Source: Paramacrobiotus metropolitanus (taxonomy: Eukaryota; Tardigrada; Eutardigrada; Parachela; Macrobiotidae). From it: a stretch of DNA of 64,000 nucleotides. The stretch lies in the NCBI RefSeq assembly GCF_019649055.1, contig NW_026570248.1, positions 620,001-684,000 of the forward strand, in the 5' to 3' direction. Shown in pieces: positions 15,082 to 64,000 of the stretch. The first letter of the stretch is position 1. The number at the start of each line of letters is the position of its first letter. A model generated the notes under the pieces. The model had not been told where the DNA came from and ran no database searches. It was given only the letters and a program-made list of their open reading frames with translations. A program made the position numbers and the translations under genes.

Positions 15082-18784
<3,703 letters not shown>

Positions 18785-18896
18785 TTCCAGCGGTAATTAT
18801 ATTAAAAATGTTCAAAAGAAAATTTCAGGACTATTCAGCACTTCGTAAAGGAAATGGAAGGGATAAATGGATGGTAAATTACACAATGGATTAATA
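18785..18896. promoter_or_regulatory. Short 5' flank of WDR47 next to the palindrome
   Basis: 112 bp between the WDR47-like start codon and the left end of the giant inverted repeat. It contains TAAATGGATGG (18864-18874) and ATTAA (18890-18894). Both words recur just beyond the right end of the palindrome (37534-37544 and 37532-37536). Confidence 0.5.
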
Positions 18897-21800
18897 GTAG
18901 TAAACGGCGTCCCGCAAAGCGATTTTGGATTTTGTCACGTCCAGATTGCAGTTTATGACGTCACACATATAGTCTAAAATACCATTGCATTTATCGCAAC
19001 CAAGTGTTTTAGTTTACACACTAGTTAATTACACTAATTAATTAATTAAGGTTTTAGTCAATCTTACAAGTACCTACCAGAAATGAACTTGTTATAGCTA
19101 ATTTTGTTCAGAAAAAAACCCTGTTAAGTGATATTTGAACTATGCGAACTTGAGATCACGTGACCAAGGTATAAATTTTAAGTTACTTTGTTGAAATTCA
19201 GCAATATTTGCTAATGGCGTCTAAAATATGTGACACATGACTTTTCAAACGTCATAAAAACAATGCAAAAATTCCATAAAAATTACCAAATTTAGACCCT
19301 ATTTTGTATTATCAACTGCATAGATTAGAGAATTATCGTAATCATACACGTACATACTAGCTTGCGTGCACGCATTAAGCTGCTGGAAACAGCTGTTACA
19401 TTTATCGCACAATAAAAGTACAGTTATGAAAGTGGGCAGTTCATGGTACACCCATACCTGTTTGTCCTATAAATAAATAAGTATCCTCAAACTGTAGAAA
19501 TAATAATGCAATATTTAACTGAATGGAATTTCAACGCGCCAGTAGCGTCATAATTAAAGTACCATGCCACAAAAAATGCATACTCAGGATCATGCTGAAC
19601 AGCCAAAGATAGTTAGAATAAATCTTCCAGTAGTGTACAGTGTACTTCATAAGGCGCAATTCATATGTATTGTACATGAGTCCCACAGTGTTAAATAGTT
19701 TATTATTCGAGCCGCTCAGGCTGTATGGCATTATTGACGAGGTAGTCGCGCTTATGTTCGAGCGCTGTTCCACGCCGCAAGAATGTAAACAACTTGTTGT
19801 GTGACAGGGACTCATCTTAGTACGATGGGTAAAGTATACAATAATGTACACCATACAGTATTATACGTAAACAGTATACAATTTTGAGCTTAACAGCTAA
19901 TACATTGCAACCCACAAGCATTGATTTATTAAGAATAAATTCCTTAAATACTTGAGACATACCATTCTATGTAGAAAAATTGATTTACAAAGTACATTTA
20001 AACGGGGTACGTACTGTATTATCATTTTATTGTAATGGTTAGATAAACAGTACACATAGCGTTCCACGCCGTGCCCACGCGCACATCAGGCACCCCACCC
20101 ATCAACGCATCAGAGATACGGATCTTCCTCAACCATGAGCACTATCCTGCCTTCGCTGCAGCTACGTTAGCGACTAAAAAGTTTTGTTTTGCATCCAAAT
20201 AGTGCGCTGAAGGATTTTATTTTGCAATTGAGGTAAAACATCCTCTAGTAGTAATTTTATGACTTTGTAAAACCAAAATCACAAATTATGCTGTTTTAAG
20301 ATGTGCACACTATACAACCGCTCACGCTCAATAAAATATTGATCTGCCAAACTGATATGATGAGCGCGCGTATGTGTAACGGAATGCTTTGCAATACTAA
20401 GTTTACATAATTATTACAAAAGAATGATACTGCTTACCCTGTTGGGAAAGTACTTAGTATAGCCGATTTTTCTCATAGAATAATGGTATGCTCAAAGTAT
20501 TTACAAAAATATATTCTTATCAAATTACTGCTTTTCGGTTACAAGCAGGATTTAAAAATATGGGTTGCTTAAAGGCACAGGTGGATTGCAATGTGCGCTG
20601 GGCGGCGCTGTCGTCATAGCCACTGCACTTTATATAATCGTTTAAATGACAGACTTATTAATTGCAGTACTGCACACATATTACATTAAACAAAAAATGA
20701 GTAAATGACTGTAATTGAAATATGCGCTAGCTTTGTTCAGTTTTGAAACGCTAAGGTAGTGTGGCATGCCATTGTAATGAACTTACAAGATGAGACCAGT
20801 TGTCTTTGGATTCCAGGCAGGTGCTTAGGCTTAAAATAAGCTTATAATATAGTCTATTTTATCCCATTTTTGCAGTACCGCTGATAGAAGAATATTTAAT
20901 ATGTACTCAAAATTATTAGAGAGCTGGGATGCACTATGGCGATCCATTTGTCTTGGTGCATCATGTTAACTCTCCTGATGTTGGTTCTCATTGAAAACAC
21001 GAACATAGTGTTCAAGATCCAAAAGCAATGTTCGAAAACCGAATACGACGCTCGAAACGAAAGCATAATGCTTTCGTGTTTAAAGCGCAGACAGAGCATC
21101 ATCCGCTGAGACAAACCGTTATTAGAGCGCATTGAGCTCTAAACTTTGAGTGGTTTTAAATCTTATCTTTTATATCAGTGGGGTAGCGAAAAATGAAATG
21201 AAAATGCAACTCTAAGCTTCACTTTAAGCCTAAACACCAGTCTGACCCAAAGACAACTGGGTTCCTATGCTGTTAGTAACTCAATGTGAAATGCTACTGT
21301 TTTACGCAAACCATTTGAAATCTGCTTGTCTTATCAGTTTTTGCTACAAAAATTGGTTCCAGAAAGGAAACCGAAAGAATGACTTTGCAAATTTAACCGC
21401 AAAATAAATGTTATCCATCAGTACTGATTTAACAGTACGAATTGCTGTACAAAAAAGAAAAGGCTGTTTTGCAAGATAGCCGTTAATGCTTTTTATAGTG
21501 CATGGTGCTCTTGAAACGTATGCGATCACAGTTAAATGAAACATTGTACAAAAGGCTGACTGATATTTGAGTTTGTTAACAAAATTAAAATTTTATCAAA
21601 ATTACAAATTGTTGACTACTCTGATTATGTAAAACTGATAAATAAAAGCATGAAACATTTTTTCGCCGAACCTAGCAATGGTATCCAATTTTTTATTGTT
21701 GCTAGCATACATTTCTGTTCCACAAAACGAAGGGTAACGAACGTTGACTACTATAGCAGAATTTTTTTGAATGATTTTGCAACAAGTATATACATCCTGC

Positions 21801-22191
21801 GAGCTGAGTCGTTTACCGCAGTTTTTTGCGAAATTTTACGCATCTAGAACTGTATAGATTCAATCAATAAAAAATAAAATGTTTACGAGATTGTAAGACA
21901 AAAATTTTTTTTGCATAAATTTTCGAAAGATGGCAAAATAGGGGTGCATGAATCAGGCATCAGAAAAGTGGTAGTCGGGCGTTCAAAACATCTGATTATA
22001 ACGCCACCACGCTAGCATTTTCCATACGGTAAAAGAGTGCACTACTGTCGTGTTTTACTGCTAAGGCGACAGAATCACTTCCGAAATTTGTACTGTATGA
22101 TATAGCGTTTGTTGAGATTTGATATTGTAGAAGTATGTTTATCAGCCTTTGTAAGTTGGTACAGTAAGCGATTGTCAATAGTTCAGCCACG

Positions 22192-22462
22192 AAAGTCATC
22201 GAAAACAAATTCTGCAAAGTTGACAGTTAGGACAATATGTTGACATTTTAAGATAGGGCAATCTGCAGCAATAGCCAGAAGCAAAAAAATATTAAAGGCT
22301 ATATCAGCAAAACGTTCAAAAAATTGAAAGTCATCGAAAACAATCTGCAAAGTTGACAGTTAGGACAATATGCTGACATTTTGCAAGATAGGGCAATCTT
22401 GCAGCAATAGCCAAGAAGCAAAAAAATATTAAAGGCTATATCAGGCAAAACGTTCAAAAATT
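22192..22462 (+). repeat. Tandem duplication inside left arm
   Basis: Two adjacent copies of about 130-135 bp, each starting GAAAGTCATCGAAAACAA. The first copy lacks several single bases found in the second. The right arm has one copy (about 33965-34110). The duplication is therefore private to one arm. Confidence 0.8.
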
Positions 22463-23864
22463 GCCAAAATTTGAAAAATGTAAAGAAACCCGAAACGCAT
22501 AGCTAACGCACGGTTCTACTCTGTCGTTTGCGTAATTTCTATAAGAAGTATAATATAACGAAGTTTTAGTGCACTTATGAAGCATGGTTTATTTAAAAAA
22601 TTAACAAGAAACAGTTTTCTTTGCGCCAATCACAAACCTGACGGACGACTACGCTGCGATAATTGTACAAAATTAGACAAAAATCTGTAATTGTCTTAAT
22701 TTTGTAAAATTAGTGTTAAATTTTTTACAATACTCATCTGTTTTATGAAGTATCATTTTCTTAAAACATTAGTAATCCACGCGCACTACTCATATGGTCG
22801 TTTAACTGGCTGCAGTATGTCATCGGTGACGGTTGTTGAAAGCAATATCACGTATTGCTGCTTCTACAAACCGATTCTTCCGTTTTTCCCTTACTCATTT
22901 CAACATAGCGTACTGTATGCGCAGTCCATACTATAATTTTTAAATTTGAAACGGTGTCCTTGCGTCGTTAAAAAAACGTGATGAACTACACGCCATGCCA
23001 CCCGATCCACTGCACTCCACCAGTGTTACAACCACATTTATGCGGCAACGCAAAATAATGATTCACTTAAATTTAATTGAATAAGTCTATTTTTTCTTTT
23101 AAAATTGTTCCTAGGTTGATTTTGTTTCATTATGCACATTTACCGCTTGCACAGCCACAACGCAGCCGTACATTACATGGCGATGACCGCTGTTTATGTA
23201 GTTCGACACAAGCGGCGTGGCAAAGTGTTGCCTTCTTATTGGCTTTTTTAGCGATGTATTTGAAAAACGGTTTAAAATGTTTTAAAAAATTTGAGACACT
23301 GTATAACATATACAGTTGAATTGAGTCCAGGAAAGGAAATTGGTTTGTGGAAGTAAGTAGTAGTTTTTCGTGATGGCTACGGTGGACGTCCACCAAGCTT
23401 TGATTTGTTGTAGGTGCCCATTTAGGTGGGCATTTAGCGACCAAAAGGGAAGAAAACAACAAGTCACTGAATTGCTGTGGGTTAAAATGAGCACGAAGCT
23501 ACATCATACACAAAACGCAGCCACAGAGCAACCAGATTAGTTTTACTCTGACGCGATTCATCATCAAAGTTGCGGCCCATTAGTACTTCGCTTTAGGGGT
23601 TCGAAGTGGTGAGTTGACTCAGGTAGACCTGTATTGACCACAGGCATTACTGTAACGAGCACGCATTCCCGAACGGTCAGCGTTGATACAGGCTGACGAC
23701 TATAGACATTGCCATGGGGCCGTGCATGATTTGCACGGATGCGTGGAGCAAAAGAAGGTCCAAACAGTTTTAGAGGTGCATAATGCTAGCGTTGCGCACT
23801 CGGATCTCGGATATGCTTCATGGATCTCACATCCTAATTAACCAGTGGTAATAACATAATTTAT

Positions 23865-24243
23865 CTACACTGTTTTGCCAGCTAGCAAACGTTTGCTTTC
23901 AAAAGTATTGTTTGTGCTTGTGGTTAGATCTTTGCACTTAGGACAACCAAGTTCTTTGCAACTGATGACTTCAGGAAATATGCCCCGAAGCTCTGTTTTC
24001 CAAATGTTATTTGTGTAAAATGTCAGTTGTACCTGAGCGTTCTCCAATCTACTAAAAAAATTCTGAATTGCTCACCACACAAGCCCATGAGAATGTCAAG
24101 ACTGACTGTGAAAGTTGGCTGGTAACGATTAAGTTTGCAGGAGTGGTAAACCAGAAACAATAGCTGAGGCCAGTGCCACAATCACACACTGCTATTCGTG
24201 TAATAAACCTCTTCGATTTAGCTATAAACGAGTCAATATCCAC
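23865..24243 (-). pseudogene. Relic ORF shared by both palindrome arms
   Basis: On the minus strand two adjoining frames (24243-24052 and 24047-23865) read as one protein segment of about 125 residues if a run of seven T is counted as six. It has VDIDSFIAKSKRFITRI at the start and CKELGCPKCKDL near the end. The right arm carries the same segment on the plus strand (32103-32515; MSECKPKVVVDIGSF), also with frame breaks. The pattern reminds me of uncharacterised element-associated proteins in invertebrates that start with an acidic V-D-I motif and end with a GCPK motif, but I cannot name the family. It looks dead in both arms. Confidence 0.4.
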
Positions 24244-27200
24244 AACAACCTTTGGCTTTGCACTCTGACATTTTTCACTATTATTTTAAAAATGTGCCTG
24301 GGGAGCAACTCGGTTTTTCTTGAGGTCATGTAGCAAACTGCATAAAAGTGAACTGTCGGTCAATTTGTCGGTAAGAAGTTGTGATAATTATCGTACGTCA
24401 GTTCAGAAATTGTCATTACAAAGCGAAGACGAGTAAATTGCTTCCATAAAAAATGAGCACGTGTTCACAATTTTTACGTCTTTAAAGGTTGAAAAATTTG
24501 ATTTTACATCAACTATTGTTTGTTTTGGTTTCTTAATTTGCTGGCACGATAGTCACTGCCATATGCGCTTTAAAGATTACATTTACTTATTGATAGTTTT
24601 GATCAAACCTTTTAATTATACTTGACGCTAGTACTGACACTTGACGCCAGTAATGCTCAACGCTAAATATGGTGAGCATCCACCTCTTAGTGGATTGGCA
24701 CATAGAAATAGCCACGGCCTGGATAAAGTTGGACGAAGTGTAACAGCTAGTCATGTTTCCATTTGCACTAATAAATTGCGTTCTTATAAATGTCATCTTT
24801 TAGTTACAGAAAGAAAAGGGCACAAACACATGTAGACAAGAAAAATGTCACCAAACTGGTCCAGTGGATATGCATATATATATATATATATGTATACATC
24901 ATTCAAAAATTAACTGCAACAGTTTCAGTGCGATATTTTTGACACCGCATTTTATCTCACTAAAATTTGACGTCAAATTTCTTGGTGGCTGTAGATAACC
25001 AGCTTTTACCCTGCATTACCTTGTTTACAGAAATTGAATTATTTTTGTGAAGTAAACATTTTTGTCTGTTGTTTTGTTCCACTTATTTGGGCTTTCGACT
25101 TCTAGTACTGTATTGTTGATAAATATTTAAACTTTGTAACTTGTTCGGAAAAGTGTTTCGAACATTACACAAAATTATGTAATAATAATGAACGATACAA
25201 GAACTGCTTCACAAAGTTTTGTCTTGGGATCACTGATCTTCATTTTAAAAGTTTTGACATGTCATCAAATGTTGGATGCGTCTGACTGTTTAATAGTTGC
25301 GCTGCAAGCTTAATGAGAAGGTATATTTTAAACTCGCTAGCTACATTCTGTAATAATTGATATATCTAAACACATTTTACGTTTTGTGGGTAAAACAGCG
25401 ACGTCTTAGTTAACCTTAATCAATTGCGATATGCATAATGTAAAACGGTTGAATAATCATGGCTAAAAATTCAAGACCGTGTGGTATAAAGATTTAACTA
25501 ACTTTCCATGTGGAGCAACAAAGTAACGCTGATTTATAATTTGACCTACATTATACTGCAATGCTTTGGTTCGCTGAGAAAATATTGGGTTTACAGTCAA
25601 TATTTAGGAAACGCTATGAGTTGTACAAACGTCTCAGCTTATACCTATTTAACAATAATGATACGGTATAAGTCTGATATTTTCTTTGCGCTTGCCACCA
25701 AAAGGCGCTTAACTGGAATTTAACTACTTGTGCACGTGTGACACGTAATGCCACTTTGAGCGGCACGGACGGCTATAGCGTGTGTCGTGATATTTGATTT
25801 AAACATATTTTGTTTAGAACTTGCATTTACAGCTGCTGTATGAAGAAACAGAGATGTTTCGTTTTGGATCTTTGAAAGTAAACAGTAAAATTTCGGCGAA
25901 CGTTTGCGTACAAATTCAAATATTATATAAAAAATAATATTATATAAAATATTTTCGTGTTTGCTGTTTAAAGGAACCTGATTAGTGCGAGCGGGTAGTG
26001 CGTACAGCAGTAAAACGGGACATGTTAGGTAATTTCGATCTTGAAAAATTTTCAAAGAATGAAATTTTATTTTGGCAGAATTTGAAGAGTTGACTAAATT
26101 ATACTCCAGTGTTTTGTATGCTAGATAATAAAGTGGGCTGATGTACAATAATAGCAATAAATACTCAACCAAAAAAATAAGACATGTTTGCAACCTGCAA
26201 AATGCAATAAGAACAACGTAACAGCAGGGTACTAGAGCTGGGAGCTATTTTCTTGCTCATTCCGGTTTTGATACTGTTAGTCATTTAGCAAACAACACGG
26301 TGGGGGAGCGTTTATAGAAAAAACAATTACGCAAAATTCTGAATACAAACTGGCCAATGCTGAACCTCTAAAGGATCACTTTTTTGTTTTTTGCGATATA
26401 TACTTACTAGTTGTGATTTCTTTTGTTATTACGAGTAGTTGGCATGCGAGTCTGTCTATCAAGCTAGTAAATTAATTAGTAACCTCTACAAGCCTATTTG
26501 TTTTGATTATTTTGAAGACGCGGAGAAGAGATAATTACTTACAACCTTTCCGTCGACATTTTGTTGCCCAAAACAACTGAAAACTGTAATAGTAACCTAC
26601 CTCACTCATACCAAAGCCGTTAAGCGAAAGGAGTAAATTTTCAGGCCTCTGAGACATCATGATAGCGACAGAAGATAAAGCACGATAAGGAGTATCGCTG
26701 ACGTACGGTTACAGATTTTGTTTACCTGTATTCGGGTAACTGAGAGATTTGATTCTAATTCAAAGAACACGCAACATGTGGTTCGAGATTGGCATTTGTT
26801 CTTTGATGTTCAAAAGCCAGCAAGCTATCGGTTAGCGTAATAGCACTGGTCTGTAAGTCTTATATCGAAAACCTTCATTTGTAGAATAAAACTTTCATAG
26901 ATTTAGTCTGCTATCGCCTGTACAGTAATGACTACAATATGATTTGATTGAAAGGCCTTGCGCTTGCATCAGTTAGAAACTGAAATACTTAATATTTTTA
27001 GTTTTTAACGACACCACAACAAAGCAGAATAAAGAAAGCATAATAGAGAAATAATAACGACTGACAGCTGCAAAGCTGTGGTTGGTTCTATAAATTGGTA
27101 ATAGCTATGACTCTTGTTGTGGTAGCGGTGCTGGTAGTGACAAGTATTGTGGTACTAGGAATGTACACTTGTTTTAAAATTTTGGTTTTCGGGCACTTGT

Positions 27201-27890
27201 GTATTTTTATTTTTCAAACCTTTTCAGAGTCTCTTGATTTCTTATTTTTGGATATTTTGGCTTTTCGTTTCAGTGTGTCTATTTGTACATTTGTTTTCGT
27301 TTTTTAATATTCCTAGATTTAAATTGCAGTTAATTCTGATGATAGGAGGAAAGTTTCGCTAGCACAAGTTTCAAGTTTTGCTAGTGTTTTATCGGCACTT
27401 AAATTTTCTTTATATTTAAGCATCCAATTAAAATTTTTCTTAAAAATACTCAGAAAGTCTAGTTAAACTAAAGACCTTGAAGCAAGAACTGCGCAAAGAC
27501 GCGTGCAGTTTTATTGACGACTCTAATTCATTAAGCGAGACCAACCGACAACCACCCTTTCTGTCCCGACCCATGATTTCTTCACGTGTCCGCTATTTGT
27601 AAAAGATTGATAGTATGTTGAACAATGTGCATGGCCGTCGGCTGGTGCAGTCAAATAAATGGAATGTCGGTTTAGTTACGCGCATACTGCATGGTGACTG
27701 CACTAATACCAAACCACGCCCACTACCTGTGTTCCTGCACATACTACCAAACACTAACATCTGTACCACCACCAAGGCTCCTCTTCTCACCTCCGTTGTT
27801 CCTACCAATTAAGGAAAAACTGAAATTAGCTGCTTAACCGGTAAGTCAACCTCGGTTAATCCGTAATTTTAAAACCGTTTCCACTACCCT

Positions 27891-28360
27891 TAAGCTTAAA
27901 GACTTGAGACAACGTGAACGGGGTTTTTCACTATTTTCTGGGAAATCGAACGAATTTTTAGCAGAAGGCAGAAGAGCGTACAAAGGCGCTCGTTTGTCTA
28001 GAGATTTTGTTAAGAGCACTACATTTGTAAAACTATTAAACCTTACTTTTCGATTAAATTTAAACATTTTTAATCTGTCTCGCTTTAACAAAACACGTTT
28101 TCCGTAGCAATAATTATTTGTCGGGTCGGATATTTTCTGCTTGCTGTATTTTGTATCACGTGGTGGTGGGTGAATCCATGTATTGTTCATTGCGCTGCAT
28201 TTTTTAAAATTTTGGCAAAAGCGTTAACGTAATTCGTTTGACGATACTAGTGAACAATCACGACCTGTGAACGGTTATTTAAGTTTCGTTTAGCATGCAT
28301 TTTTACTTGACGCAAAATTTGTTACAATTCAGTGCGCCAGCACTACGTTTTGAGCAATTT
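27891..28360. other. Unique spacer at the palindrome centre
   Basis: 470 bp between the inner ends of the arms (CCACTACCCT and AGGGTAGTGG). It has no internal symmetry. Open frames of 67 codons (plus) and 114 codons (minus, extending into the arm) give basic, Phe/Asn/Arg-rich peptides I do not recognise. It is the only unpaired part of the structure. Confidence 0.85.
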
Positions 28361-31300
28361 AGGGTAGTGGAAGCGGTTTAAAATTAGGGATTAACCGAGG
28401 TTGATTTACCGGTTAATCAGCTGATTTCAGTTTTTCCTTAATTGGTAGGAACAACGGTGGTGAGAGGAGGAGCCTTGGTAGTGGTACAGATGTTAGTGGT
28501 TGGTAGAATGTGCAGGAACACTGGTAGCGGGCGTGGTTTGGTATTAGTGCAATCACCATGCAGTATGCGCGTAACTAAACCGACATTCCATTTATTTGAC
28601 GGCACCAGCCGACGGCCATGCACATTGTTCAACATGCTATCAATCTTCTACAAATAGCGGACACGTGAAGAAATCAGTGGTCGGGACAGAAAGGGTGGTT
28701 GTCGGTTGGTCTCGCTTAATGAGTAAGCCGTCAATAAAACTGCACGCATCTTTGCGCAGTTCTTGCTTCAAGGTCTTTAGTTTAACTAGACTTTTGAGTA
28801 TTTTTAAGGAAATTTTAATTGGATGCTTAAATATAAAGAAAATGTAAGTGCTGATAAAACACTAGCAAAACTTGAAACTTGTGCTAGCGAAACTTTCCTC
28901 CTATCATCAGAATTAACTGCAATTTAAATCTAGGAATATTAAAAAAACGAAAAACAAATGTACAAAATAGACACACTGAAAAAACGAAAAGCCAAAATAT
29001 CCAAAAATAAGAAATCAAGAGACTCTGAAAAGGTTTGAAAAATAAAAATTACACAAGTACCCGAAAACCAAAATTTTAAAACAAATTGTACATTCCTAGT
29101 ACCACAATACTTGTCACTACCAGCACCGCTACCACAACAAGAGTCATAGCTATTACCAATTTATAGAACCAACCACAGCTTTTGCAGCTGTCAGTCGTTA
29201 TTATTTCTCCTATTATGCTTTCTTTATTCTGCGCTGTTGTGGTGTCGTTAAAAAACTAAAAATATTAAGTATTTCAGTTTCTAACTGATGCAAGCGCAAA
29301 GGCCTTTTCCAATCAAATCATATTGTAGTCATTACTGTACATAGGCGATAGCAGACTAAATCTATGAAAGTTTTATTCTACAAATGAAGGTTTTCGATAT
29401 AAGACTTACAGACCAGTGCTATTACGCTAACCGATAGCTTGCTGAAAACTTTTGAACATCAAAAGAACAAATGCCAATCTCGAACTACATGTTGCGTGTT
29501 CTTTGAATTAGAATCAAATCTCTCAGTTACCCGAATACAGGTAAACAAAATCTGTAACCGTACGTCAGCGATACTCCTTATCGTGCTTTATCGCTACCGT
29601 CGCTATCATGATAGCTCTCACCAGAGGAAGCCTGAAGAATTTACTCCTTTCGCTTAACAGCTTTGGTATGTGTGAGTGAGGTAGGTTACTATTACAGTTT
29701 TCAGTTGTTTTGGGCAACAAAATGTCGACGGAAAGGTTGTAAGTAATTATCTTATCTCTTCTCCCGCGTCTTCAAAATAATCAAAGACAAATAGGCTTGT
29801 AGAGGTTACTAATTAATTTACTAGCTTGATAGACAGACTCGCATGCCAACTGCTCGTAATAACAAAAACAAAATCACAACTAGTAAGTACATATCGCAAA
29901 AAACGAAATGTGATCCTTTTAGAGGTTCAGCATTGGTCAGTTTGTATTCACAATTTTGCGTAATTGTTTTTTCTATAAACGCTCCCCAGCCCGTGTTGTT
30001 TTGCTAAATGACTAACAGTATCAAAAACCGAAATGAGCAAGAAAATAGGTCCCAGCTCTGGTACCTTGCTGTTAAGTTGTTCTTATTGCATTCTGCAAGT
30101 TGCAAACATGTCTTATTTTTTAGCTGAGTATTTATTGCTATTATTGGTACATCAGCCCACTTTATTATCTAGCAGACCAAAAACACACTGGAGGTATAAT
30201 TTAGTCAACTCTTCAAATTCTGCCAAAATAAAATTTCATTCTTTGAAAATTTTTCAAGATCGAAATTATCTAACATGTCCTGTTTTATTGCTGTACGCAC
30301 TACCCGCTCGCACTAATCAGGTTCGCACAACAGCAAACACGAAAATATTTTTATATAATATTATTTTTATATAATATTTAGATTTGTACGCAAACGTTCG
30401 CCGAAATTTTACTGTTTACTTTCAAAGAACCAAAACGAAACATCTCTGTTTCTTCATACAGCAGCTGTAAATGCAAGTTCTAAACAAAACATGTTTAAAT
30501 CAAATATCACGACACACGCTATAGCCGTCCGTGCCGCTCAAAGTGGCATTACGTGTCACACGTGCACAAGTAGTTAAATTCCAGTTAAGCGCCTTTTTGG
30601 TGGCAAGCGCAAAAGAAAATATCCAGACTTATACCGTATCATTATTGTTAAATAGGTATAAGCTGAGACGTTTGTACAACTCATAGCGTTTCCTAAATAT
30701 TGACTGTAAACCCTTAATATTTTCTCAGCGAACCAAAGCATTGCAGTATAATGTAGGTCAAATTACAAATCAGCGTTACTTTGTTGCTCCACATGGAAAG
30801 TTAGTTAAATCTTTATTGCCACACGGTCTTGAATTTTTAGCTTATGATTATTCAACCGTTTTACATTATGCATATCGCAATTGATTAAGGTTAACTAAGA
30901 CGTCATGTTTTTACCCACAAAACGTAAAATGTATTTAGATATATCAATTATTTACAGAATGTAGCCATAGCGAGTTTAAAATGACCATACCTTCTCATTA
31001 AGCTTGCAGCGCAACTATTAAAGCAGTCAGACGCATCCAACATTTGATGACAGTAATGTCAAAACTTTTAAAATGAAGATCAGTGATCCCAAGACAAAAC
31101 TTTGTGAAGCAGTTCTTGTATCGTTCATTATTATTACACTAATTTTTGTAGTAATGTTCGAAACACTTTTCCGAACAAGTTACAAAGTTTAAATATTTAT
31201 CAACAATCGCACAGTACTAGAAGTCGAAAGCCCAAATAAGTGGGAACAAAACAACAGACAAAAATGTTTACTTCACAAAAATAATTCAATTTCCTGTATT

Positions 31301-34300
31301 AAACAAGGTAATGCAGGGTAAAAGCCTTGGTTATCTACAGCCACCAAGAAAATTTGACGTCAAATTTTAGTGAGATAAAATGCGGTGTCACAAAAATGTC
31401 GCACTGGAAACTGTTGCAGTTAATTTTTGGAATGATGTATACATATATATATATATATACATATGCATATCCACGTTGGACCAGTTTGGTGACATTTTTC
31501 TTGTCTACATGTGTTTGTGCCCTTTTCTTTCTGTAACTAAAAGATGACATTTATAAGAACGCAATTTATTAGCTGCAAATGGAAACTTGACTGTAGCTGG
31601 TATTTCCTACACTTCGTCCAACTTTATCCAGGCCGTAGGCTAATTTCTATGTGCCAATCCACTAAGAAGGTGGATGCTCACCATATTTAGCGTTGAGCAT
31701 TACTGGCGTCAAGTGTCGAGTACTAGCGTCAAGTATAATTAAAAAGGTTTGATTAAAAACTATCAATAAGTAAATGTAATCTTTAAGAGCGCATATGGCA
31801 GTGACTATCGTGCCAGCAAATTAAGAAACCACAAAAACAAACAATAGTTGATGTAAAATCAAATTTTTCAACCTTTTAAAGACGTAAAAATTGTGAACAC
31901 GTGCTCATTTTTTATGGAAGCAATTTACTCGTCTTCGCTTTGCTTAATGACAATTTCCTGAACTGACGTACGATAATTATCACAACTTCTTACCCGACAA
32001 ATTATTGACCGACAGTTCACTTTTATGCAGTTTTGCTACATGACCTCAAGAAAAACCGAGGATTGCTCCCCAAGGCACATATTTTTAAAATAATAGTGAA
32101 AAATGTCAGAGTGCAAGCCAAAGGTTGTTGTGGATATTGGCTCGTTTATAGCTAAATCGAAGAGGTTTATTACACGAATAGCAGTGTGTGATTGTGGCAC
32201 TGGCCTCAGCTATTGTTTCTGGTTTACCACTCCTGCAAACCTTAATCGTTACCAAGCCAACTTTCACAGTCAGTCTTGACATTCTCATGGGCTTGTGTGG
32301 TGAGCAATTCAGAATTTTTTAGTAAAGATTGGAGAACGCTCAGTACAACTGACATTTTACACAAATAACATTTGGAAAAGCAGAGCTTCGGGAGCATATT
32401 TCCCTGAAGTCATCAGTTGCAAAGAACTTGGTTGTCCTAAGTGCAAAGATCTAACCACGCAAGCACAAACAATACTTTTGAAAGCAAAACGTTTGCTAGC
32501 TGGCAAAACAGTGTAGATAAATTATGTTATTACCATTGGTTAATTAGGATGTGAGATCCACTTGAAGCACATATCCGAGTGCGCAACGCTAGCACATTAT
32601 GCACCTCTAAAACTGTTTGGACTGCTTCTTTGCTCCACGCATCCGTGCAAATCATGCACGGCCCCCATGGCAATGTCTATAGTCGTCAGCCTGTATCAAC
32701 GCTGACCGTTCGGGGTGGCGTGCTCGTTACAGTAATGCCTGTGGTCAATACGAGTCCTACCTAGGTCAACTCACCACTTCGAACCCCTAAAGCGAAGTAC
32801 TAATGGGCCGCAACTTTGATGATGAATCGCGTCAGAGTAAAACTAATCTGGTTGCTCTGTGGCTGCGTTTTTGTGTATGATGTAGCTTCGTGCTCATTTT
32901 AACCCACAGCAATTCAGTGACTTGTTGTTTTTCTTCCCTTTTGGTCGCTAAATGCCCACCTAAATGGGCACCTACAGCAAATCAAAGCTTGGTGGACGTC
33001 CACCGTAGCCATCACGAAAAACTACTACTTTTACTTCCACAAACCAATTTCCTTTCCTGGACTCAATTCAGCACAGCATATGTTATACACAGTGTCTCAA
33101 ATTTTTAAAACATTTTAAACCGTTTTTTCAAATACATCGCTAAAAAGCCAATAAGAAGGCAACACTTTGCCACGCCGCTTGTGTCACCGAACTACACCAT
33201 AAAACGGCGGTCATCGCCATGTATGTACGGCTGCGTTGTGGCTGTGCAAGTGGTAAATGTGCATAATGAAACAAAATCAACCTAAGGAACAATTTTAAAA
33301 GAAAAAGTAGACTTATTCAATTAAATTTAAGTGAATCATCATTATTTTGCGTTGCCGCATAAATGTGGTGGTAACACTGGTGGAGTGCAGTGGATAGGGT
33401 GGCATGGTGTGTAGTTCATCACGTTTTTTTAACGACGTTATTGTAAGGACACCGTTTCAAATTTTAAAAAAATTATTAGTATTGGACAGCGCATACAGTA
33501 CGCTATGTTGAAATGAGTAAGGGAAAAAGCGGAAGGAAATCGGTTTGTAGAAGCAGCAATACGTGATGACCCCTTTCAACAACCGTCACCCATTGACATA
33601 CTGCAGCCAGTTAAACGACCATATGAGTAGTGCGCGTATGAATTACTAATGTTTTTGAAAGTGATACTTCATAAAACGAATGAGTATTGCTAAAAAATTT
33701 TAACACTAATTTTACAAAAAATTAAGAAAAACAATTACAGATTTTTGTCTAATTTTGTACAATTATCGCAGCGTAGTCGTCCGTCAGGTTTGTGATTGGC
33801 GCAAAGAAAACTGTTTCTTGTTAATTTTTACTAAACCATGCTTCATAAGTGCACTAAAAACTTCGTTATATTATACTTCTTATAGAAATTGCAGCAAACG
33901 ACAGGGTAGAACCGTGCGTTAGCTATGCGTTTCGGGTTTCTTTACATTTTTTTCAAATTTTGGCAATTTTTTGAACGTTTTGCTTGATATAGCCTTTAAT
34001 ATTTTTTGCTTCTTGGCTATTGCTGCAAGATTGCCCTATCTTGCAAAATGTCAACATATTGTCCTAACTGTCAACTTTGCAGAATTTGTTTTCGATGACT
34101 TTCGGTAAGCTGTGAACTATTGACAATAGCTTACTGTACCAACTTATCTGCCAACAAAGGCTGATAAACATACTTCTACAATATCAAATCTCAACAAACG
34201 CTATATCATACAGTACAGAATTTCGGAAGTGATTTCTGTCGCCTTAGCAGTAAAACACGACAGTAGTGCACTCTTTTACCGTATGGAAAATGCTAGCGTG

Positions 34301-37300
34301 GTGGCGTTATAATCCAGATGTTTTTGAACGCCCGACTACCACTTTTTTCTGATGCCTGATTCATGCACCCCCTATTTTTGCCATCTTTCGAAAATTTATG
34401 CAAAAAAAATTTTTGTCTTACAATCTCGGCTTAAAGAAACATTTTATTTTTTATTGATTGAATCTATACAGTTCTAGATGCGTAAAATTTCGCAAAAAAC
34501 TGCGGTAAACGACTCAGCTCGCAGGAAGTATATACTTGTTGCAAAATCATTCGCAAAAAAATTCTGCTATAGTAGTCAACGTTCGTTACCCTTCGTTTTG
34601 TGGAACAGAAATGTATGCTAGCAACAATAAAAAATTGGATACCATTGCTAGGTTCGGCAAAGAGAAAAAATGCTTTCATGCTTTTATTTATCAGTTTTTA
34701 CATAATCAGAGTAGTCAACAATTTGTAATTTTGATAAAATTTTAATTTTGTTAACAAACTCAAATATCAGTCAGCCTTTTGTGTACAATGTTTCATTCAA
34801 CTGTGATCGCATACGTTTCAAGAGCACCATGCACTATGCAAAAAGCATTAACGGCTATCTTGCAAAACAGCCTTTTCTTATTTGTACAGCAATTCGTACT
34901 GTTAAATCAGTACTGATGGATAACATTTATTTTGCGGTTAAATTTGCAAAGTCATTCTTTCGGTTTCCTTTCTGGAACCAATTTTTTGTTTAAGCAAAAA
35001 ACTGATAAGACAAGCCAGATTTCAAATGGTTTGCGTAAAAGAACAGTAAGCATTTCACATTAAGAGGTTACCCTAACAAGCATAGGAACCCAGTTGTCTT
35101 TGGAGTCCAGACTGGTGTTTAGGCTTAAAGTGAAGCTTAGAGTATATTGCATTTTCATTTCATTTTTCGCTACCCCACTGATATAAAAGATAAGATTTAA
35201 AAACCACTCAAAAGTTTTCAGAGAGCTCAAATGCGCTCTAATAACGGTTTGTCTCAGCGGATGATGCTCCTGTCTGCGCTTTTAAACACGAAGCACAAGC
35301 ATTATGCTTTCGTTTCGAGCGTCGTATTCGGTTTTCGAACATTGCTTTTGGATCTTGAACACTATGTTCGTGTTTTCAATGAGAACCAACATCAGGAGAG
35401 TTAACATGATGCACCAAGACAAATGGATCGCCATAGTGCATCCCAGCTCTCTAATAATTTTGAGTACATATTAAATATTATCCTTCATATCAGCGGTACT
35501 GCAAAAATGGGATAAAATAGACTATATTATAAGCTTATTTTAAGCCTAAGCACCTGCCTGGAATCCAAAGACAACTGGGTCCTCATGCTTGTAAGTTCAT
35601 TACAATGGCATGCCACACTACCTTAGCGTTTCAAAAACTGAACAAAGCTAGCGCACGCGAAATATTTCAATTACAGTCATTTACTCATTTTTTTGTTTAA
35701 TGTAATAACTTAGTAATTTATTTGCAGTACTGCAATTAATAAGTCTGTCATTTTGACAACGATTATATAAAGTGCAGTGGCTATGACGACAGCCGCCGCC
35801 CAGCGCACATTGCAATCCACCTGTGCCTTTAAGCAACCCATATTTTTAAATCCTGCTTGTAACCGAAAAGCAGTAATTTGATAAGAATATATTTTTGTAA
35901 ATACTTTGAGCATACCATTATTCTATAGAGAAAAAATCGGCTATACTAAGTACTTTTTTTCCCAACAGGGTAAGCATTATCATTCTTTTGTAATAATTAT
36001 GTAAACTGAGTATTGCAAAGCATTCCGTTACACATACGCGCGCTCATCATATCAGTTTGGCAGATCAATATTTTATTGAGCGTGAGCGGTTGTATAGTGT
36101 GCACATCTTAAAACAGCATAATTTGTGATTTTGGTTTTACAAAGTCATAAAATTACTACTAGAGGATGTTTTACCTCAATTGCACAGAAAAATAAAAAAT
36201 CCTTCAGCGCACTATTTGGATGCAAAACAAAACTTTTTAGTCGCTAACGTAGCTGCAGCGAAGGCAGGATAGTGCTCATGGTTGAGGGAAGATCCGTATC
36301 TCTGATGCGTTGATGGGTGGGGTGCCTGATGTGCGCGTGGGCACGGCGTGGAACGCTATGTGTACTGTTTATCTAACCATTACAATAAAATGATAATACG
36401 AGTACGTACCCCGTTTTAAAAATAGTACTTTGTAAATCCAATTTTTCTACATAGAATGGTATGTCTCAAGTATTTAAGGAATTTATTCTTAATAAATCAA
36501 TGCTTGTGGGTTGCAATGTATTAGCTGTTAAGCTCAAAATTGTATACTGTTTACGTATAATACTGTATGGTGTACATTATTGTATACTTTACCCATCGTA
36601 CTAAGATGAGTCCCCTGTCACACAACAAGTTGTTTACATTCTTGCGGCGTGGAACAGCGCTCGAACATAAGCGCGACTACCTCGTCAATAATGCCATACA
36701 GCCTGAGCGGCTCGAATAATAAACTATTTAACACTGTGGGACTCATGTACAATACATATGAATTGCGCCTTATGAAGTACACTGTACACTACTGGAAGAT
36801 TTATTCTAACTATCTTTGGCTGTTCAGCATGATCCTGAGTATGCATTTTTTGTGGCATGGTGGAGCACTTTAATTATGACGCTACTGGCGCGTTGAAATT
36901 CCATTCAGTTAAATATTGCATTATTATTTCTACAGTTTGAGGATACTTATTTATTTATAGGACAAACAGGTATGGCTGTACCATGAACTGCCCACTTTCA
37001 TAACTATACTTTTATTGTGCGATTAATGTAACAGTGTTTCCAGCAGCTTATTGCGTGCACGCAAGCTAGTATGTACGTGTATGATTACGATAATTCTGTA
37101 ATCCATGCAGTTGATAATACAAACTAGGGTCTAAATTTGGTAATTTTAATGGAGATTTTGCATTGTATTTATGACGTTAAAAAGTCGTGTGTCACACACT
37201 TTAGACGCCATTAGCAAATATTGCTGAATTTCAACAAAGTAACTTAAAAATTTATACCTTGGTCACGTGATCTCAAGTTCGCATAGTTCAAATATCACTT

Positions 37301-37531
37301 AACCCAGGGTTTTTTTCTGAACAAAATTAGCTATAACAAGTTCATTTCTGGTAGGTACTTGTAAGATTGACTAAAACCTTAATTAATTAATTAGTGTAAT
37401 TAACTAGTGTGTAAACTAAAACACTTGGTTGCGATAAATGCAATGGTATTTTAGACTATATGTGTGACGTCATAAACTGCAATCTGGACGTGACAAAATC
37501 CAAAATCGCTTTGCGGGACGCCGTTTACTAC
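28361..37531 (-). repeat. Giant inverted repeat, right arm
   Basis: This 9,171-bp arm is the reverse complement of 18897-27890. It ends in CCGTTTACTAC at 37531. Near the centre the arms differ by true substitutions (for example five residues in a 65-codon frame at 27615-27812 versus 28635-28438), while the outermost 300 bp are almost identical. No intact gene is recognised. It carries a second copy of the relic ORF (32103-32515) and a (TA)n tract near 31445. The unique sequence leading to UBA3 starts directly after it. Confidence 0.93.
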
Positions 37532-38122
37532 ATTAAATGGATGGATGAACACAAAACTGAAAGTTCCCAAACGTTAATGAATGACGAAATTCACAACAGA
37601 GAGAGTATACGTACAAAGGCAAATAATTGAATGAAGGGAAACTTTTATTGCAGCGCAGCAGACGGCCATATGAATGGGCAGCAGACGCATCAAAACATTG
37701 GTGAGTCATTGCAGTGGCACAAATCAGTATGACCCGCCGCAGTACGAACAACAGTACAAGGCTTTTAATACCGTTTCAAGTTTCAACCGTTTATATCGGT
37801 TTACGTCTTTGTAGACATCCGAGTTGAGCTGTAAAGCAACTGTCTGCAATTTCGATAAGCCTGGAAGATCTTCCTTAATCATTCTCGCTGCGGTTTGCGA
37901 TAACAACCGAAAGCGGAAAAAATATCGTGGTGAGTGCTTGTAGTCTGCAGTCTCCCGACTCGGATATCCAGCGTCAGTCCAGGAGTTCTGCAGTACGCAC
38001 TGAGGCCATTGACTGGTACGGTACAAGAAGGATAGCTTTTTTTAGTTACGTAGTGAGTGTTTAACTTCAACCATTTCATAACCAGGGAAAATATCTCCAG
38101 AAGAGTTCGTACGGTATTTCAT
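37532..38122 (+). promoter_or_regulatory. 5' flank of UBA3
   Basis: About 590 bp between the right end of the palindrome and the UBA3 start. It begins ATTAAATGGATGG, matching words in the flank of the left arm. I see no other structure; promoter and 5' UTR are presumed here. Confidence 0.4.
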
Positions 38123-41607: not shown

Positions 41608-44449
41608 GAAGGATCGACTCAAAACGTGCAGGAAAATTACACAATCAAACACCGAATAAGATTCCAGAACAAGAATAAGCTGCTTTAAGCGCTGCTTTAA
41701 GGTGAAGCGCTTCAGTGGTATAAATCTAATCAAACCAATTTCGACAACTATTCGCGTCCTGTGCCTTTGTGAAAAACCGGCGAACCGCTATATCAACTCA
41801 AGGCTCCAAAATCATAATTCAACCAAAACGAATAATAATTATTATTATTTTAATTATTATTATTAACTTTATAAGTTACGGTAGCCACTAATTTTTTGTA
41901 CTTGTATATTTCTAGTTATTATTATTACTAATTTTTCAAAATTGCGAAAAACGTCCAGGATTTCTCCTCGTCTAATGGAAACAACTTCCGTTTGGTAGGC
42001 ACGCCTCTAACCTTCGAAAACGCTATCGCACGCACCGGACGGTATTGTAGACTTTGTAGTGTGCTGTGTTTTGTACGTTGTACGAGAAGTGCATGAGTTT
42101 GTTTGTTGCATGAGTGATAACAAAGTCCGTAAGTTTTTAATTAGAATTTTATACTATATTCGGTTTTGTCGAATTGAAGTACTGTAAGTAAGTACTGTAA
42201 ATACTAGTATGCCTAATTTTTTCATAATTGCCACAGAGTTGCCACAGAGCTCGTGACGTCACGAACCGGAAAAAATGCCGAACCGTGGCAAAACCGACAG
42301 CGAAATTACCCGAAGCGCCAACAGAAATAATTAACTGCGCCAAATGTAAGCATTTTTAGCCGGAAGTGCGAGACAGCATGGGTTTCTAAGAGAATTGCTT
42401 ATATCTATAACTTTGGTGCTATAGAAATATGGGCGTTTACGTTCCCTTTATGCAAATTATCCCAGTATTTTAATTATTCTAGCAACATCCGCTTGTCAAA
42501 ACTCAGCTCTGAAGGCAAGCAATGGAGTACGAACATTGGCCGTGTAGCATTGCCGCTTACGGGCGAAATCGTTTCCGGTCCATCTATTTTTTTCATGTGA
42601 TTAGAGATCACCTGTGGCAGCTCATCTATACGTAATGTAATGAGCACGATAAAGCTGTCTGGTAGGAACTAGGAAGCAGTCAAGCAGAGTATACTTGCGT
42701 CTTATTAATTTCAATTTCTGATGGTGAACTGCAATTGAAGTTAGTGATTAATCCTGTAAAATTACTTGCTTGTTGGACTGCCAAAATGTGACGCTATTGA
42801 AGGCTATTCAGTATTCAGACGTTTCATCGTTATCTGTCTAATGGTTAATTCTGTGAACCTTTCCCCTGGTGCGTTTGATAGATTTCTGAACTACCGCCGG
42901 CCGGGTCGCTTTAATTCGTTTATCCTGGCAGGCCTGGCTACGGAAGATCCTTTTTTTCTCCTGCACTTCATCGTTTCCATATCCGTTTAAACGCAGCTGA
43001 ACGCTGAAGCACGCACTACGCTTATAAGTACAGTTACGAAATTGAGCCACCTTTGCATTATTTCACCGCTGTCTGAGCGCAGGCGGTGATTATGATTATT
43101 CGCACCAACGCCAAGGAAGAAGGACGTTATCGATCGCCTTTACCTGCGGCCTTCTTATTTGCTTCGCGTCGTTGGTGTGTGGCTGTGTTGAAGCCGGAGA
43201 TTATTTACTAGATTATATTCTCAGCCCCTATGCAGGCTATGCCGTTGAATTCTGGATTTTTGAAATGCATTCTAGCCATTAACCATCCGTGGACTGCTGG
43301 ATGGAAGGAATGCAGAACTGTGTTCCCGTAAACGATAAAATTCGGTATGTGGTAAATGGTAATTAGCAATTTTGGAAGTTAAAAGCTGAAATCTGTCGTT
43401 GGCTTGCCGTCACTTGCTCGAATCTACGTCGTGCATGATACGTATCCTAGGACCAGCAGTTGATAATTTTGCCACTTTATAATTTATTATTTTCTCACCG
43501 TCAGCTGCAGTATTTGCTGTTTGCACATGGCGTATGGCGTTGGTTGCAGTGCAGATGGCTATCGTAAAAGAGTTTACAAATACTAATCTTTTGAAGTACT
43601 AAGAAGGAGGTGTACTTAAACACATTGTCGTCGAAATACGGTAGGTAATCTCTTCGTCTGTTTTTAGTAGCATGCTCTTCTCGGTCCACTTGAAGCACAC
43701 TTTAACCTATTCAGTCAGCTGGTTGTTAAAATGTCTGGATTTCAAAGTTTTTTAATTGTGTCTTTGAAGAGTTTCTAGAGCCTTACAGCTACAATAAACA
43801 ATTAACATGTACGAATAATTGATCGCAATTACCACCTGTATAGAAACGTACTTTTTAAAATTTATGTGACTCTGCCAGACTGCGGCACTAAAAGAAATGG
43901 TTTAAAGTAATACAATAATATAATTTTAGTTTTATGTGAATTATCGCCCGCAGTTATCAACAGCACTTGCTTACGCAGAACCTTATGGAAATTGCTGATA
44001 TTTGTTTGACGAGTATGGGTACCTCTACAGTTCTACTTGTAATGGGATTGTCGAAGACTGTTTTTCTTGGAGCTTTTAATTTGCTGTACCATAACAAAAA
44101 CTGTCTGTTGGAATCAGGTAAAAGTTTGTGAATTTTACGATTAATCGCAAAATTTACAATAATATTTTATGTAATATCCAGGCATTACGTAAAAGACCAA
44201 TGTTGGTCTTTTACGTAATACCTGGATATTACATAAAATATTATAATTGTTGTAGTGCACTGTGGCATAATTTATTATAACGCTTTGACTTTTGTTGCAG
44301 CTCTAGGACAGTTTTGTGCCATCTTGATTCCATCATCACTGCTGTTCAAAAACATCCCCAGTGAAGCTGAGGATCTCCAGTGCGACATATGCCCGCCATT
44401 CTGCATCATCTTGGCCTAAAAGAATTGCGCTTATCTGGTACCTTTTACC
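41608..44449. promoter_or_regulatory. Divergent intergenic region POLR2H / MGAT4-like
   Basis: About 2.8 kb between head-to-head genes. It contains an ATT-rich tract (41834-41868), no convincing open frame, and a strong 40-bp-arm hairpin at 44161-44242. Promoters of both genes and perhaps a non-coding 5' exon of the MGAT4-like gene must lie here. Confidence 0.4.
44161..44242. repeat. Near-perfect hairpin, 40-bp arms
   Basis: AATATTTTATGTAATATCCA begins the left arm (44161-44200). A 2-base loop (TG) follows, then the right arm 44203-44242, with a single mismatch in 40 pairs. It is AT-rich and lies about 200 bp upstream of the MGAT4-like start. The ends do not show a clear target duplication. 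It may be a tiny foldback element or a structured RNA. Confidence 0.85.
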
Positions 44450-56938: not shown

Positions 56939-57227
56939 CTTCTGACGAACAGAAATCTTTACGAATAAATACAAAAAATTCCTGACCTTTTCAGATAAAT
57001 TCTACGATAGAATTTCCTGGTTACGTGCCTGGAATTTTGGTAGCTGTAAACTGTCTGTCTGTGGTAAGTGCATAGTAGCTAGATCATTATCAGCCTAGCA
57101 CGATAACAAAAGAAGCGGATATATCCGCATACGAAAAAAAATATTGCTACTGCAATAAAGCCGTGCCTTTCTGCCTATGCATTGACTGTAATTGAAAATA
57201 CTTGTATACTGTAAATCACGAAATACG

Positions 57228-59759: not shown

Positions 59760-59779
59760 ATCCCGGCCACGCTGTTCCC
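59732..59779 (+). promoter_or_regulatory. -1 ribosomal frameshift signal (gag/pol)
   Basis: The heptamer T-TTA-AAC (59732-59738) lies in the gag frame as a canonical X-XXY-YYZ slippery site. Six bases later a hairpin begins: GGGAACGGCC (59745-59754) pairs with GGCC (59765-59768) and GTTCCC (59774-59779). The pol frame opens exactly at 59732, directly after an in-frame stop at 59729. Confidence 0.85.
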
Positions 59780-62700: not shown

Positions 62701-64000
62701 CGCGGATACCGAAGAAGACAATTTTATGTTCTTACGAAAAGAACAGGAAAAGGATCCCGTAATTCTAAAGAAAATTCTAAAGCTGGAAAACCGCGATGCG
62801 ACGAAGCCGTTACCGAAAGATTATGACACATACGAAATGTGGCATAAAGTACTGTATAAAATATCGGAACGGGATGCACAGAAATATCGTCGATTCATTG
62901 TCCCACGTCACATGAGAGGAGACATTTTACGCGCCATGCACGATTCCCCTTCAAGCGGACATCTTGGAAGAAAGAAAACGTATAAGGCGATAGAAGTACG
63001 ATACTTCTGGAACGGCATGACGCAGGACATCATCGACTACTGTGATAGCTGCAAACGATGCCAGATGCGGAAAATTCTTGGGAAATTACCACCAGGAAAA
63101 CTACAAGAAGTGAAAGTCGGTGAACCCTTCTTCAAAATTCAAATGGACTTGAAAGGCCCGTTGCCAATTACGCGGAAGAACAAAAACCGATACATCGCCG
63201 TGGCCATCGATCATCTAACAAAGTTCGTGATAGCAGACGCGCTGCCCAACATAAAAGCCTCAACAGTCGCTGATTTCTTCGTTAAACGAGTGGTACTGCC
63301 GTATGGAGCACCAAGGATAGTCGATACGGACAGAGGAAGACAATTCACGAGTAAACTCTTCGAAAAGATTACGAAAATCTTAAAAATCGAACGACACCTC
63401 GGATGCGCATACCACCCGGAAGGACGCGGCTTGGTTGAGCGGCAGATGCGTAGTATAGCAGATTCGCTCGCGATGTACGTGCGGAGAGGACATGTACGAA
63501 ATTGGGACCAGTTTCTTCCATTTGTAGTCTCGGCACGAAACCGAGTACCGCATAAAACGACGAAGATGTCCCCGTTTCGGATGCTGTACGCCAGGGAACA
63601 AGTAATTCCAGAAGATATCGTTACGCAAACGAATCTTCCCGTCGACTACGAGTCAATGGATGATTACCTGAAAGCGACAGCAGATCACCTCGCACGTGCA
63701 CATGAAATAGCAGAAATATTTATTGAAGAAGAATTCCAAAAGAAAGCGGAATTATATAACCGACGAAAGTCTACGCCTACGTTCAAAATCGGTGATCTCG
63801 TATGGATAAAGCAAACTCAAAAGAAGAAAGATGAAGTAGATACGCTACGAAAGCAGTATCTGGGACCATACGAAATTTTAAAATTTCCATACGGAAATAC
63901 GGTCACAGTAAAATGCCAAAAAGACGGAAAAACAATGGACGTGGCAGTTGATCGATTTAAACCGTATATATCACCGGACATTGAACTGCGGAAAATTCCC
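59732..64000 (+). CDS. pol: Gypsy-type retrotransposon Pol (continues past window)
   Basis: Open to the right edge, over 1,420 codons without a stop, in the -1 frame relative to gag. Domains in order: aspartic protease with MIDTGAETS (about residue 85) and LLGQDFL; reverse transcriptase (about 500-740) with FDCHQGFWQIPM, MPFGVCNGPATFQ and the active site FLDDL (about 675); RNase H (about 810-940) with ECDASYVGIGA, ELECLAVV, TDHQAL and NADDLSR; and integrase with an HHCC zinc finger (CDSCKRCQ). The integrase DDE triad is D in MDLKGP (63145), D in DTDRGRQF (63329) and E in GLVERQ (63437), giving the classical D-35-E spacing. A basic C-terminal part follows (FKIGDLVWIKQTQ, LGPYEI). The domain order protease-RT-RNase H-integrase marks Ty3/gypsy. 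Whether an envelope gene follows cannot be seen. All catalytic residues are present. Confidence 0.95.

What the first reader, a model, noticed from the sequence alone, without database searches (positions are those of the whole stretch)
18897..37531. 18.6-kb near-perfect palindrome with 9-kb arms and a 470-bp centre
The two arms mirror each other across their whole length. Such size is far beyond usual foldback elements or MITEs, and there is no intact transposase. The outer ends are sharp and sit between two unique genes, and flanking words repeat on both sides. Near the centre the arms differ by base substitutions, so they have existed long enough to diverge, while the outer 300 bp are almost identical. 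Possibilities are a giant non-autonomous foldback transposon, a collapsed pair of head-to-head insertions, or a gene-conversion-maintained palindrome. It could represent an undescribed element class.
Basis: partly seen in the sequence, partly recalled or inferred. Interest (0 to 1): 0.88.

Follow-up and report, generated by a model that had tools for sequence, protein, structure and literature searches.

The report
Giant palindromic hitchhiker of Maverick elements
An 18.6-kb stretch of what looks like an animal genome reads almost the same on both strands; it appears to be a gene-less mobile element whose tips match those of virus-like Maverick transposons in the same genome, so it probably moves with their machinery.

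Summary
The palindrome is real: arms 18897-27890 and 28361-37531 around 470 bp. The genome holds three more diverged palindromes of the family (C42, C39, C27). The ends are of Maverick/Polinton type: AGTAGT at the left tip, ACTAC(A) at the right, flanks ATTAAT/ATTAAA; copy C42 has AGCAGC...GCTGCT and an exact 6-bp duplication, ACCGCC. The outer 33-35 bp match PolB-bearing elements of 21-26 kb in the same genome (34/35 here; 32/33 for C42, which matches another Maverick subfamily). Eight of nine full-length tip pairs enclose a PolB hit; the two complete palindromes enclose none listed, and no coding signal held up. Best reading: a non-autonomous Maverick satellite whose inverted repeats have grown to nearly its whole length (9 kb; 46-1,447 bp in vertebrate Mavericks). 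Arms are sisters in three of four copies, so palindromes are homogenised; C39's outer arms are not, which suggests the palindrome is inherited. Much of this window's arm divergence looks like poor consensus in the left arm (315 missing bases against 7). Against: six of seven full-length pairs read have no target duplication, and no integrase was established.

The parts
18896..18930 (+). left terminal module, begins AGTAGT; 34 of 35 alignment columns as in the Maverick on contig C405 (one gap)
37498..37532 (-). right terminal module, same sequence inverted; last base A instead of T
18890..18895 (.). left target-site duplication candidate ATTAAT
   Evidence: 5 of 6 match to the right
37532..37537 (.). 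right target-site duplication candidate ATTAAA (its first base overlaps the expected last base of the element)
18897..27890 (+). left arm; excess of small deletions, probably poor consensus
27891..28360 (.). 470-bp spacer; matched in the centre of copy C39 (582610-583078, 89%)
28361..37531 (-). right arm, the cleaner one
22191..22460 (+). 133-bp tandem duplication in the left arm; the right arm has a single copy there

Best explanation
The palindrome is a gene-less (non-autonomous) member of the Maverick/Polinton group: a satellite with Maverick tips whose inverted repeats make up nearly the whole element. Shown: shared tips with a doubled trinucleotide, an exact 6-bp duplication in one copy and a near match here, a family of four palindromes, no coding signal that held up, PolB elements with the same tips in the same genome. 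Inferred: a Maverick in the same nucleus supplies protein-primed polymerase and integrase; the palindrome arose when a shorter defective element was copied back on itself during strand-displacement replication (snap-back), giving the functional tip at both ends; when single-stranded, the element folds into a long hairpin, and mismatch repair in that hairpin (or conversion in the chromosome) keeps the arms alike.
For: Tips: the 24-bp terminus occurs at 37 places with up to 3 mismatches (four of them on the palindromes C28, C39, C27), 0 for the reversed control pattern. The window's tip agrees in 34/35 columns with C405's; C42's in 32/33 with C58's, although the two palindromes agree in only 22/35 there and in 63/77 just inside. 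So each palindrome wears the tip of a different Maverick subfamily. C405 carries DNA_pol_B_2 (1.1e-11) and an adenovirus-type protease (3.7e-6) between its tips. Of nine non-palindromic tip pairs 21.3-26.1 kb apart, eight enclose a PolB hit (6 of 7 of the first tip type, 2 of 2 of the second); the two complete palindromes enclose none (one search scored 74 of 658 candidates). TSD: C42 exact ACCGCC, window 5 of 6. (AGT)2//(ACT)2 ends, 6-bp TSDs and 12.7-24.6 kb size are given for vertebrate Mavericks in PMC8097293 (passages). Family: C28, C39, C27, C42. No coding: no Pfam match at E 0.05 for 4 window ORFs, 1 of C42 and 2 of C39; in the four arm pieces tested the longest ORF is within the shuffles; no tblastx match to C405. 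Homogenisation.
Against: Beyond about 70 bp nothing in the arms resembled the C405 Maverick. The window TSD has one mismatch, and six of seven full-length tip pairs whose flanks were read show no TSD (C7, C1, C131, C148, C213, C58; only C160 shows GGTAAC, and only if its right tip is taken one AGT shorter), so the usual integration signature is weak even in the supposed helpers. The integrase was not established: the best rve match in C405 is E 0.094, for one ORF, and ten C405 ORFs only were scanned. C39 and C27 lack the outer 1.8-2 kb of the right arm, so only two of four copies have both ends. The left arm has one 174-aa stop-free frame (25723-26244), longer than the longest in any shuffle (153, of other arms); it has no Pfam match. 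One stretch of the outer arm (240-480 bp, C42 against C28) shows codon-like periodicity above its null, but no common ORF. No reads, no empty site, no evidence of movement.
Confidence: 0.77

Rival explanations
1. Assembly artefact: one arm was assembled twice (missed adapter, fold-back read or graph error).
For: Left arm of the window has 315 missing bases against 7 in the right and an excess in homopolymers, as in unpolished sequence; gap runs are one-sided in C39 (29 against 11), C42 (6 against 15) and C27 (3 against 28) too.
Against: Flanks differ on the two sides and the inverted match stops at the element's tips. Four loci share the architecture; C42 has an exact TSD. In the outer arm of C39, of the sites where its two arms differ, 40 have the right arm like C27 and the left like C28, 3 the reverse, which an assembler's copy or random error cannot give.
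Confidence: 0.08
2. A palindrome made in place after insertion of a one-armed Maverick derivative (break and inverted duplication), independently at each locus.
For: Arms are more alike within a copy than between copies at C28, C27 and C42; spacers differ: 470 bp here, 3.9 kb in C42, 6.4 kb in C39.
Against: C42 has both tips and an exact TSD, so it moved as a palindrome; the window nearly so. In C39's outer part the right arm groups with C27 and not with its own left arm, so the two arms are older than that split unless sequence was exchanged between copies.
Confidence: 0.1
3. A foldback element of a cut-and-paste superfamily (P/Galileo-like, or PIF/Harbinger, whose transposase lies in the centre of C39).
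For: C39 centre has DDE_Tnp_4 (2.9e-23) and a Myb/SANT-like ORF (6.5e-8), the gene pair of Harbinger elements (recalled).
Against: tblastx of the C39 centre gives no match to C42 or C27, and to C28 chiefly the spacer and arm parts. Tips and 6-bp duplication are of Maverick type; Galileo makes 7-8 bp TSDs (PMC4168063, passages).
Confidence: 0.04

Closest known systems
Maverick/Polinton (vertebrate set of PMC8097293)
   Same: doubled trinucleotide tips, 6-bp TSD (C42), size range, tips shared with PolB elements of this genome
   Different: no genes found; inverted repeats about 9 kb against 46-1,447 bp reported there (passages)
Foldback-like elements such as Galileo (P superfamily)
   Same: long inverted repeats, variable in structure, ends more conserved than the rest (PMC4168063, passages)
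   Different: other superfamily, 7-8 bp TSD; shorter repeats (recalled)
Symmetric adenovirus recombinants (SYREC) and self-complementary AAV genomes (both recalled; search 38 for the former found no paper)
   Same: palindromic genome with a viral end at both tips, replicated with a helper's proteins
   Different: those are viral DNAs in infected cells or vectors, not chromosomal families
Teratorn
   Same: giant element with long inverted repeats and viral relations (PMC6431247, passages)
   Different: piggyBac-herpesvirus fusion, 41-182 kb, 18-bp TIRs, many genes

Membership tests
Maverick/Polinton | doubled short motif at both tips, as (AGT)2//(ACT)2 | tested here: met
   AGTAGT left; ACTACA right, one base off; C42 AGCAGC//GCTGCT
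Maverick/Polinton | 6-bp target-site duplication | tested here: inconclusive
   C42 exact; window 5 of 6; C39 and C27 right ends missing
Maverick/Polinton | tips shared with PolB-bearing elements of the same genome | tested here: met
Maverick/Polinton (autonomous) | PolB, integrase, protease, ATPase, capsid genes | tested here: not met
   no Pfam match in the palindrome ORFs scanned, no PolB hit listed inside; hence at most a non-autonomous member
Maverick/Polinton | protein-primed replication, virion packaging | not testable with these tools
   inferred only
PIF/Harbinger | 3-bp TSD (recalled) and transposase belonging to the family | tested here: not met
   6-bp duplication in C42; transposase found only in C39
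Foldback/Galileo | 7-8 bp TSD, P-type transposase relatives | tested here: not met
   6-bp TSD in C42; transposase relatives not searched for

The most novel reading that the evidence does not exclude
A lineage of self-complementary satellites of virus-like Mavericks: the displaced strand snaps into a ready hairpin, skips second-strand initiation and is copied and perhaps packaged with helper proteins; the satellite changes its outermost 33-35 bp to fit whichever Maverick subfamily is active, and its two arms record, like the LTRs of a retrotransposon, the time since the last round of replication.
Probability: 0.3. Interest if true: 0.82.

Novelty: new variant of a known kind. Interest (0 to 1): 0.62.

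Why it matters
Long palindromes are unstable in most genomes (recalled), yet here a family of 12.7 to over 23 kb persists and has spread. If Maverick proteins mobilise them, they are natural helper-dependent satellites of protein-primed elements in an animal and point to the part of the tip (33-35 bp) that a helper may recognise. Arm-to-arm divergence would also give a clock and a test of how palindromes are homogenised. My search for six phrases of the kind 'non-autonomous Polinton/Maverick' found no paper in the held open-licence library; it says nothing of other wordings or of subscription journals.

Tried and rejected
Searching the arms for genes: ten ORFs were scanned; 4 of 4 window ORFs, 1 C42 ORF and 2 of 5 C39 ORFs had no Pfam match at E 0.05, the other three C39 ORFs are the Harbinger pieces and the Myb-like ORF. 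A conserved ORF in the outer 0.6 kb was considered and dropped: that part is conserved in sequence, but no stop-free frame is common to all copies. Head-to-head pair of complete insertions: dropped, no tip found at the centre. Harbinger as the mover: dropped. piggyBac because of TTAA at the ends: dropped once C42 showed AGCAGC tips and ACCGCC. Size constraint by packaging: the complete palindromes are 12.7 and 18.6 kb and the full-length pairs 21-26 kb, but an 895-bp pair with the second tip type exists, so size proves nothing. Naming the organism through V-ATPase A: matches up to 94%, the named ones mostly birds at up to 92%, none decisive. Precedents in adenovirus: one search listed no paper; searches listed 11 and 2, none on the point by title and start of abstract, none opened.

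Full report
What was checked. The window lies on contig C28 (620001-684000) of a 169.8-Mb assembly of 533 contigs. The inverted repeat is as described: 18897-27890 against 28361-37531, with a 470-bp spacer. No tRNA and no Rfam family at gathering score was found in the window.

It is a family. Arm sequence was sought in the whole genome in three pieces (only the best candidates are scored, so counts are lower bounds). Long matches occur at three further places, and at each they are again an inverted pair: C42:191237-203963 (arms 4.4 kb, 98.65% by blastn; 13 substitutions in 4,402 aligned), C39:567510-590895 (arms 96.0 and 98.7% by piece, 6.4-kb centre) and C27:65989-76989 (arms 98.9-99.6%). 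Between copies identity is 75-96% by piece, lowest with C42 and highest between C27 and C39. C396 has a solo piece of the outer 600 bp at 85%. Other matches are under about 550 bp. C39 and C27 lack the outer 1.8 and 2.0 kb of the right arm.

The ends. The left ends of C28, C39 and C27 begin AGTAGT; the window's right end has one base off; C42 begins AGCAGC and ends GCTGCT, flanked by ACCGCC on both sides. The window is flanked by ATTAAT and ATTAAA. In vertebrate Mavericks the commonest tips are (AGT)2//(ACT)2, with 6-bp duplications, TIRs of 46-1,447 bp and sizes of 12.7-24.6 kb, and the doubled motif is said to serve jumping-back in protein-primed replication (PMC8097293, passages seen).

The helpers. 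The 24-bp tip occurs at 37 places with up to three mismatches, none for the reversed control. Apart from the window's palindrome, seven inverted pairs lie 21.3-26.1 kb apart; six enclose a hit to the C405 polymerase piece, C213 does not. The C42-type tip occurs at 11 places; besides C42 itself, two pairs 22.8 and 23.0 kb apart both enclose a polymerase hit, and one pair of 895 bp does not. Among single tips, 11 of 21 of type one have a polymerase hit within 25 kb inwards and 0 of 3 of type two; two of the 21 are the palindromes C27 and C39, without a hit. One search scored 74 of 658 candidates, so missing hits are not proof of absence. C405 itself has polymerase B, an adenovirus-type protease, a RING protein and a TBP gene between its tips. 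PolB genes are abundant in this genome (507 first-look candidates, 79 scored).

Matched tips. The window's outer 35 bp agree with C405 in 34 columns (one gap); C42's outer 33 bp agree with C58 in 32. The two palindromes agree with each other in 22 of 35 there but 63 of 77 in the next stretch, where agreement with the Mavericks is weak (55/92, 53/89 with gaps). Either the tip was exchanged or tip and helper changed together; both suggest dependence on the helper. This rests on one contrast (three type-one palindromes, one type-two).

No genes found. Pfam finds nothing in the window ORFs tested. In the four arm pieces tested (C28 right, C39 left, C42 left, C42 centre) the longest ORFs are within the range of 20 shuffles each, and substitutions show no codon periodicity overall, with one exception near the tip that has no common frame. 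The left arm, not among those four, has one 174-aa open frame without Pfam match. tblastx against C405 and C360 gives nothing; C396 matches in the outer 600 bp. C39's centre holds a PIF/Harbinger-type transposase and a Myb-like ORF with no counterpart seen in C42 or C27: probably a passenger.

Arms through time. In a 1-kb shared stretch the arms of C28, C27 and C42 pair as sisters (support 0.998, 1.0, 1.0), while C39's right arm groups with C27 (1.0), not with its own left arm. Along C39 the arms differ by 5-9% in the outer part read (1.8-4.3 kb), where the right arm is 94-97% like C27, and by 0-2.2% from 4.8 kb inwards. Of the outer sites where C39's arms differ, 40 have right like C27 and left like C28, 3 the reverse, 81 are unique to the left, 23 to the right; 9 sites set both C39 arms apart from the other two (2,402 columns). 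The excess on the left may again include consensus error, the 40 to 3 cannot. In the inner part C39's arms are sisters. The simplest account is that the palindrome is older than these copies and is homogenised piecewise; exchange between copies could also give the C39 pattern.

Left arm quality. Of the differences in this window, 167 substitutions are left-derived and 55 right-derived; 315 bases are missing only on the left and 7 only on the right; few of the missing bases (9) lie in the first 1 kb. One-base losses favour homopolymers. If the right arm's rate (55 in 8,838) holds for both, true divergence is near 1.2%; this is an estimate, not a measurement.

Mechanism. Shown: tips, family, inverted structure, absence of recognisable genes, co-resident polymerase elements. 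Inferred: helper mobilisation, snap-back origin, repair in the hairpin, packaging. The integrase of the helper was not established (rve E 0.094), and six of seven full-length tip pairs whose flanks I read show no TSD, which I cannot explain.

Verdict. A real, unusual non-autonomous Maverick/Polinton derivative whose repeats make up nearly the whole element: a new variant of a known kind, not a new class. On checking, mended counts (single tips 11 of 21; identities between copies 75-96%) did not call for a change of odds.

Noticed in passing
L009:2762-3394 (contig C405): A TATA-binding-protein gene (Pfam TBP, 6.1e-30) lies within a PolB-bearing Maverick-like element that also has a RING ORF and a weak, below-cut-off PC4 match (0.0025); perhaps captured host transcription genes.
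   Followed up: no
C7, C1, C131, C148, C213, C58 tip pairs (L030, L032, L036-L041, L043, L044, L047, L048): Six of seven full-length tip pairs whose flanks were read have no target-site duplication, although the tips are intact.
   Followed up: partly
L046:109-1003 (C130:20408-21302): 895-bp element with C42-type tips and flanks TGCGTG/TGCCTG; a miniature non-autonomous relative of the Maverick at C58, 91% alike over the 250 bp at one end.
   Followed up: partly
L019:7258-8420 and L020:1237-1614: PIF/Harbinger-type transposase pieces and a Myb/SANT-like ORF in the spacer of the C39 palindrome.
   Followed up: partly
window 59732-64000: Long ORF of a Ty3/gypsy-type retrotransposon (protease, RT, RNase H, integrase) running to the window's end; a long ORF at 57192-59756 before it was not scanned.
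   Followed up: no
window 44159-44244 and 17794-17952: Short inverted repeats (86 bp at 95%, about 160 bp at 82%) outside the element.
   Followed up: no
L012:3111-6332 (C396): Tandem array with a period of about 317 bp, copies 97-98% alike.
   Followed up: no
window 18224-18796: ORF on the minus strand whose upstream end lies about 100 bp from the palindrome; no Pfam match itself, resembles WDR47 from memory; a WD40 match lies further on at 15532-15891. The insertion may sit in a promoter.
   Followed up: partly
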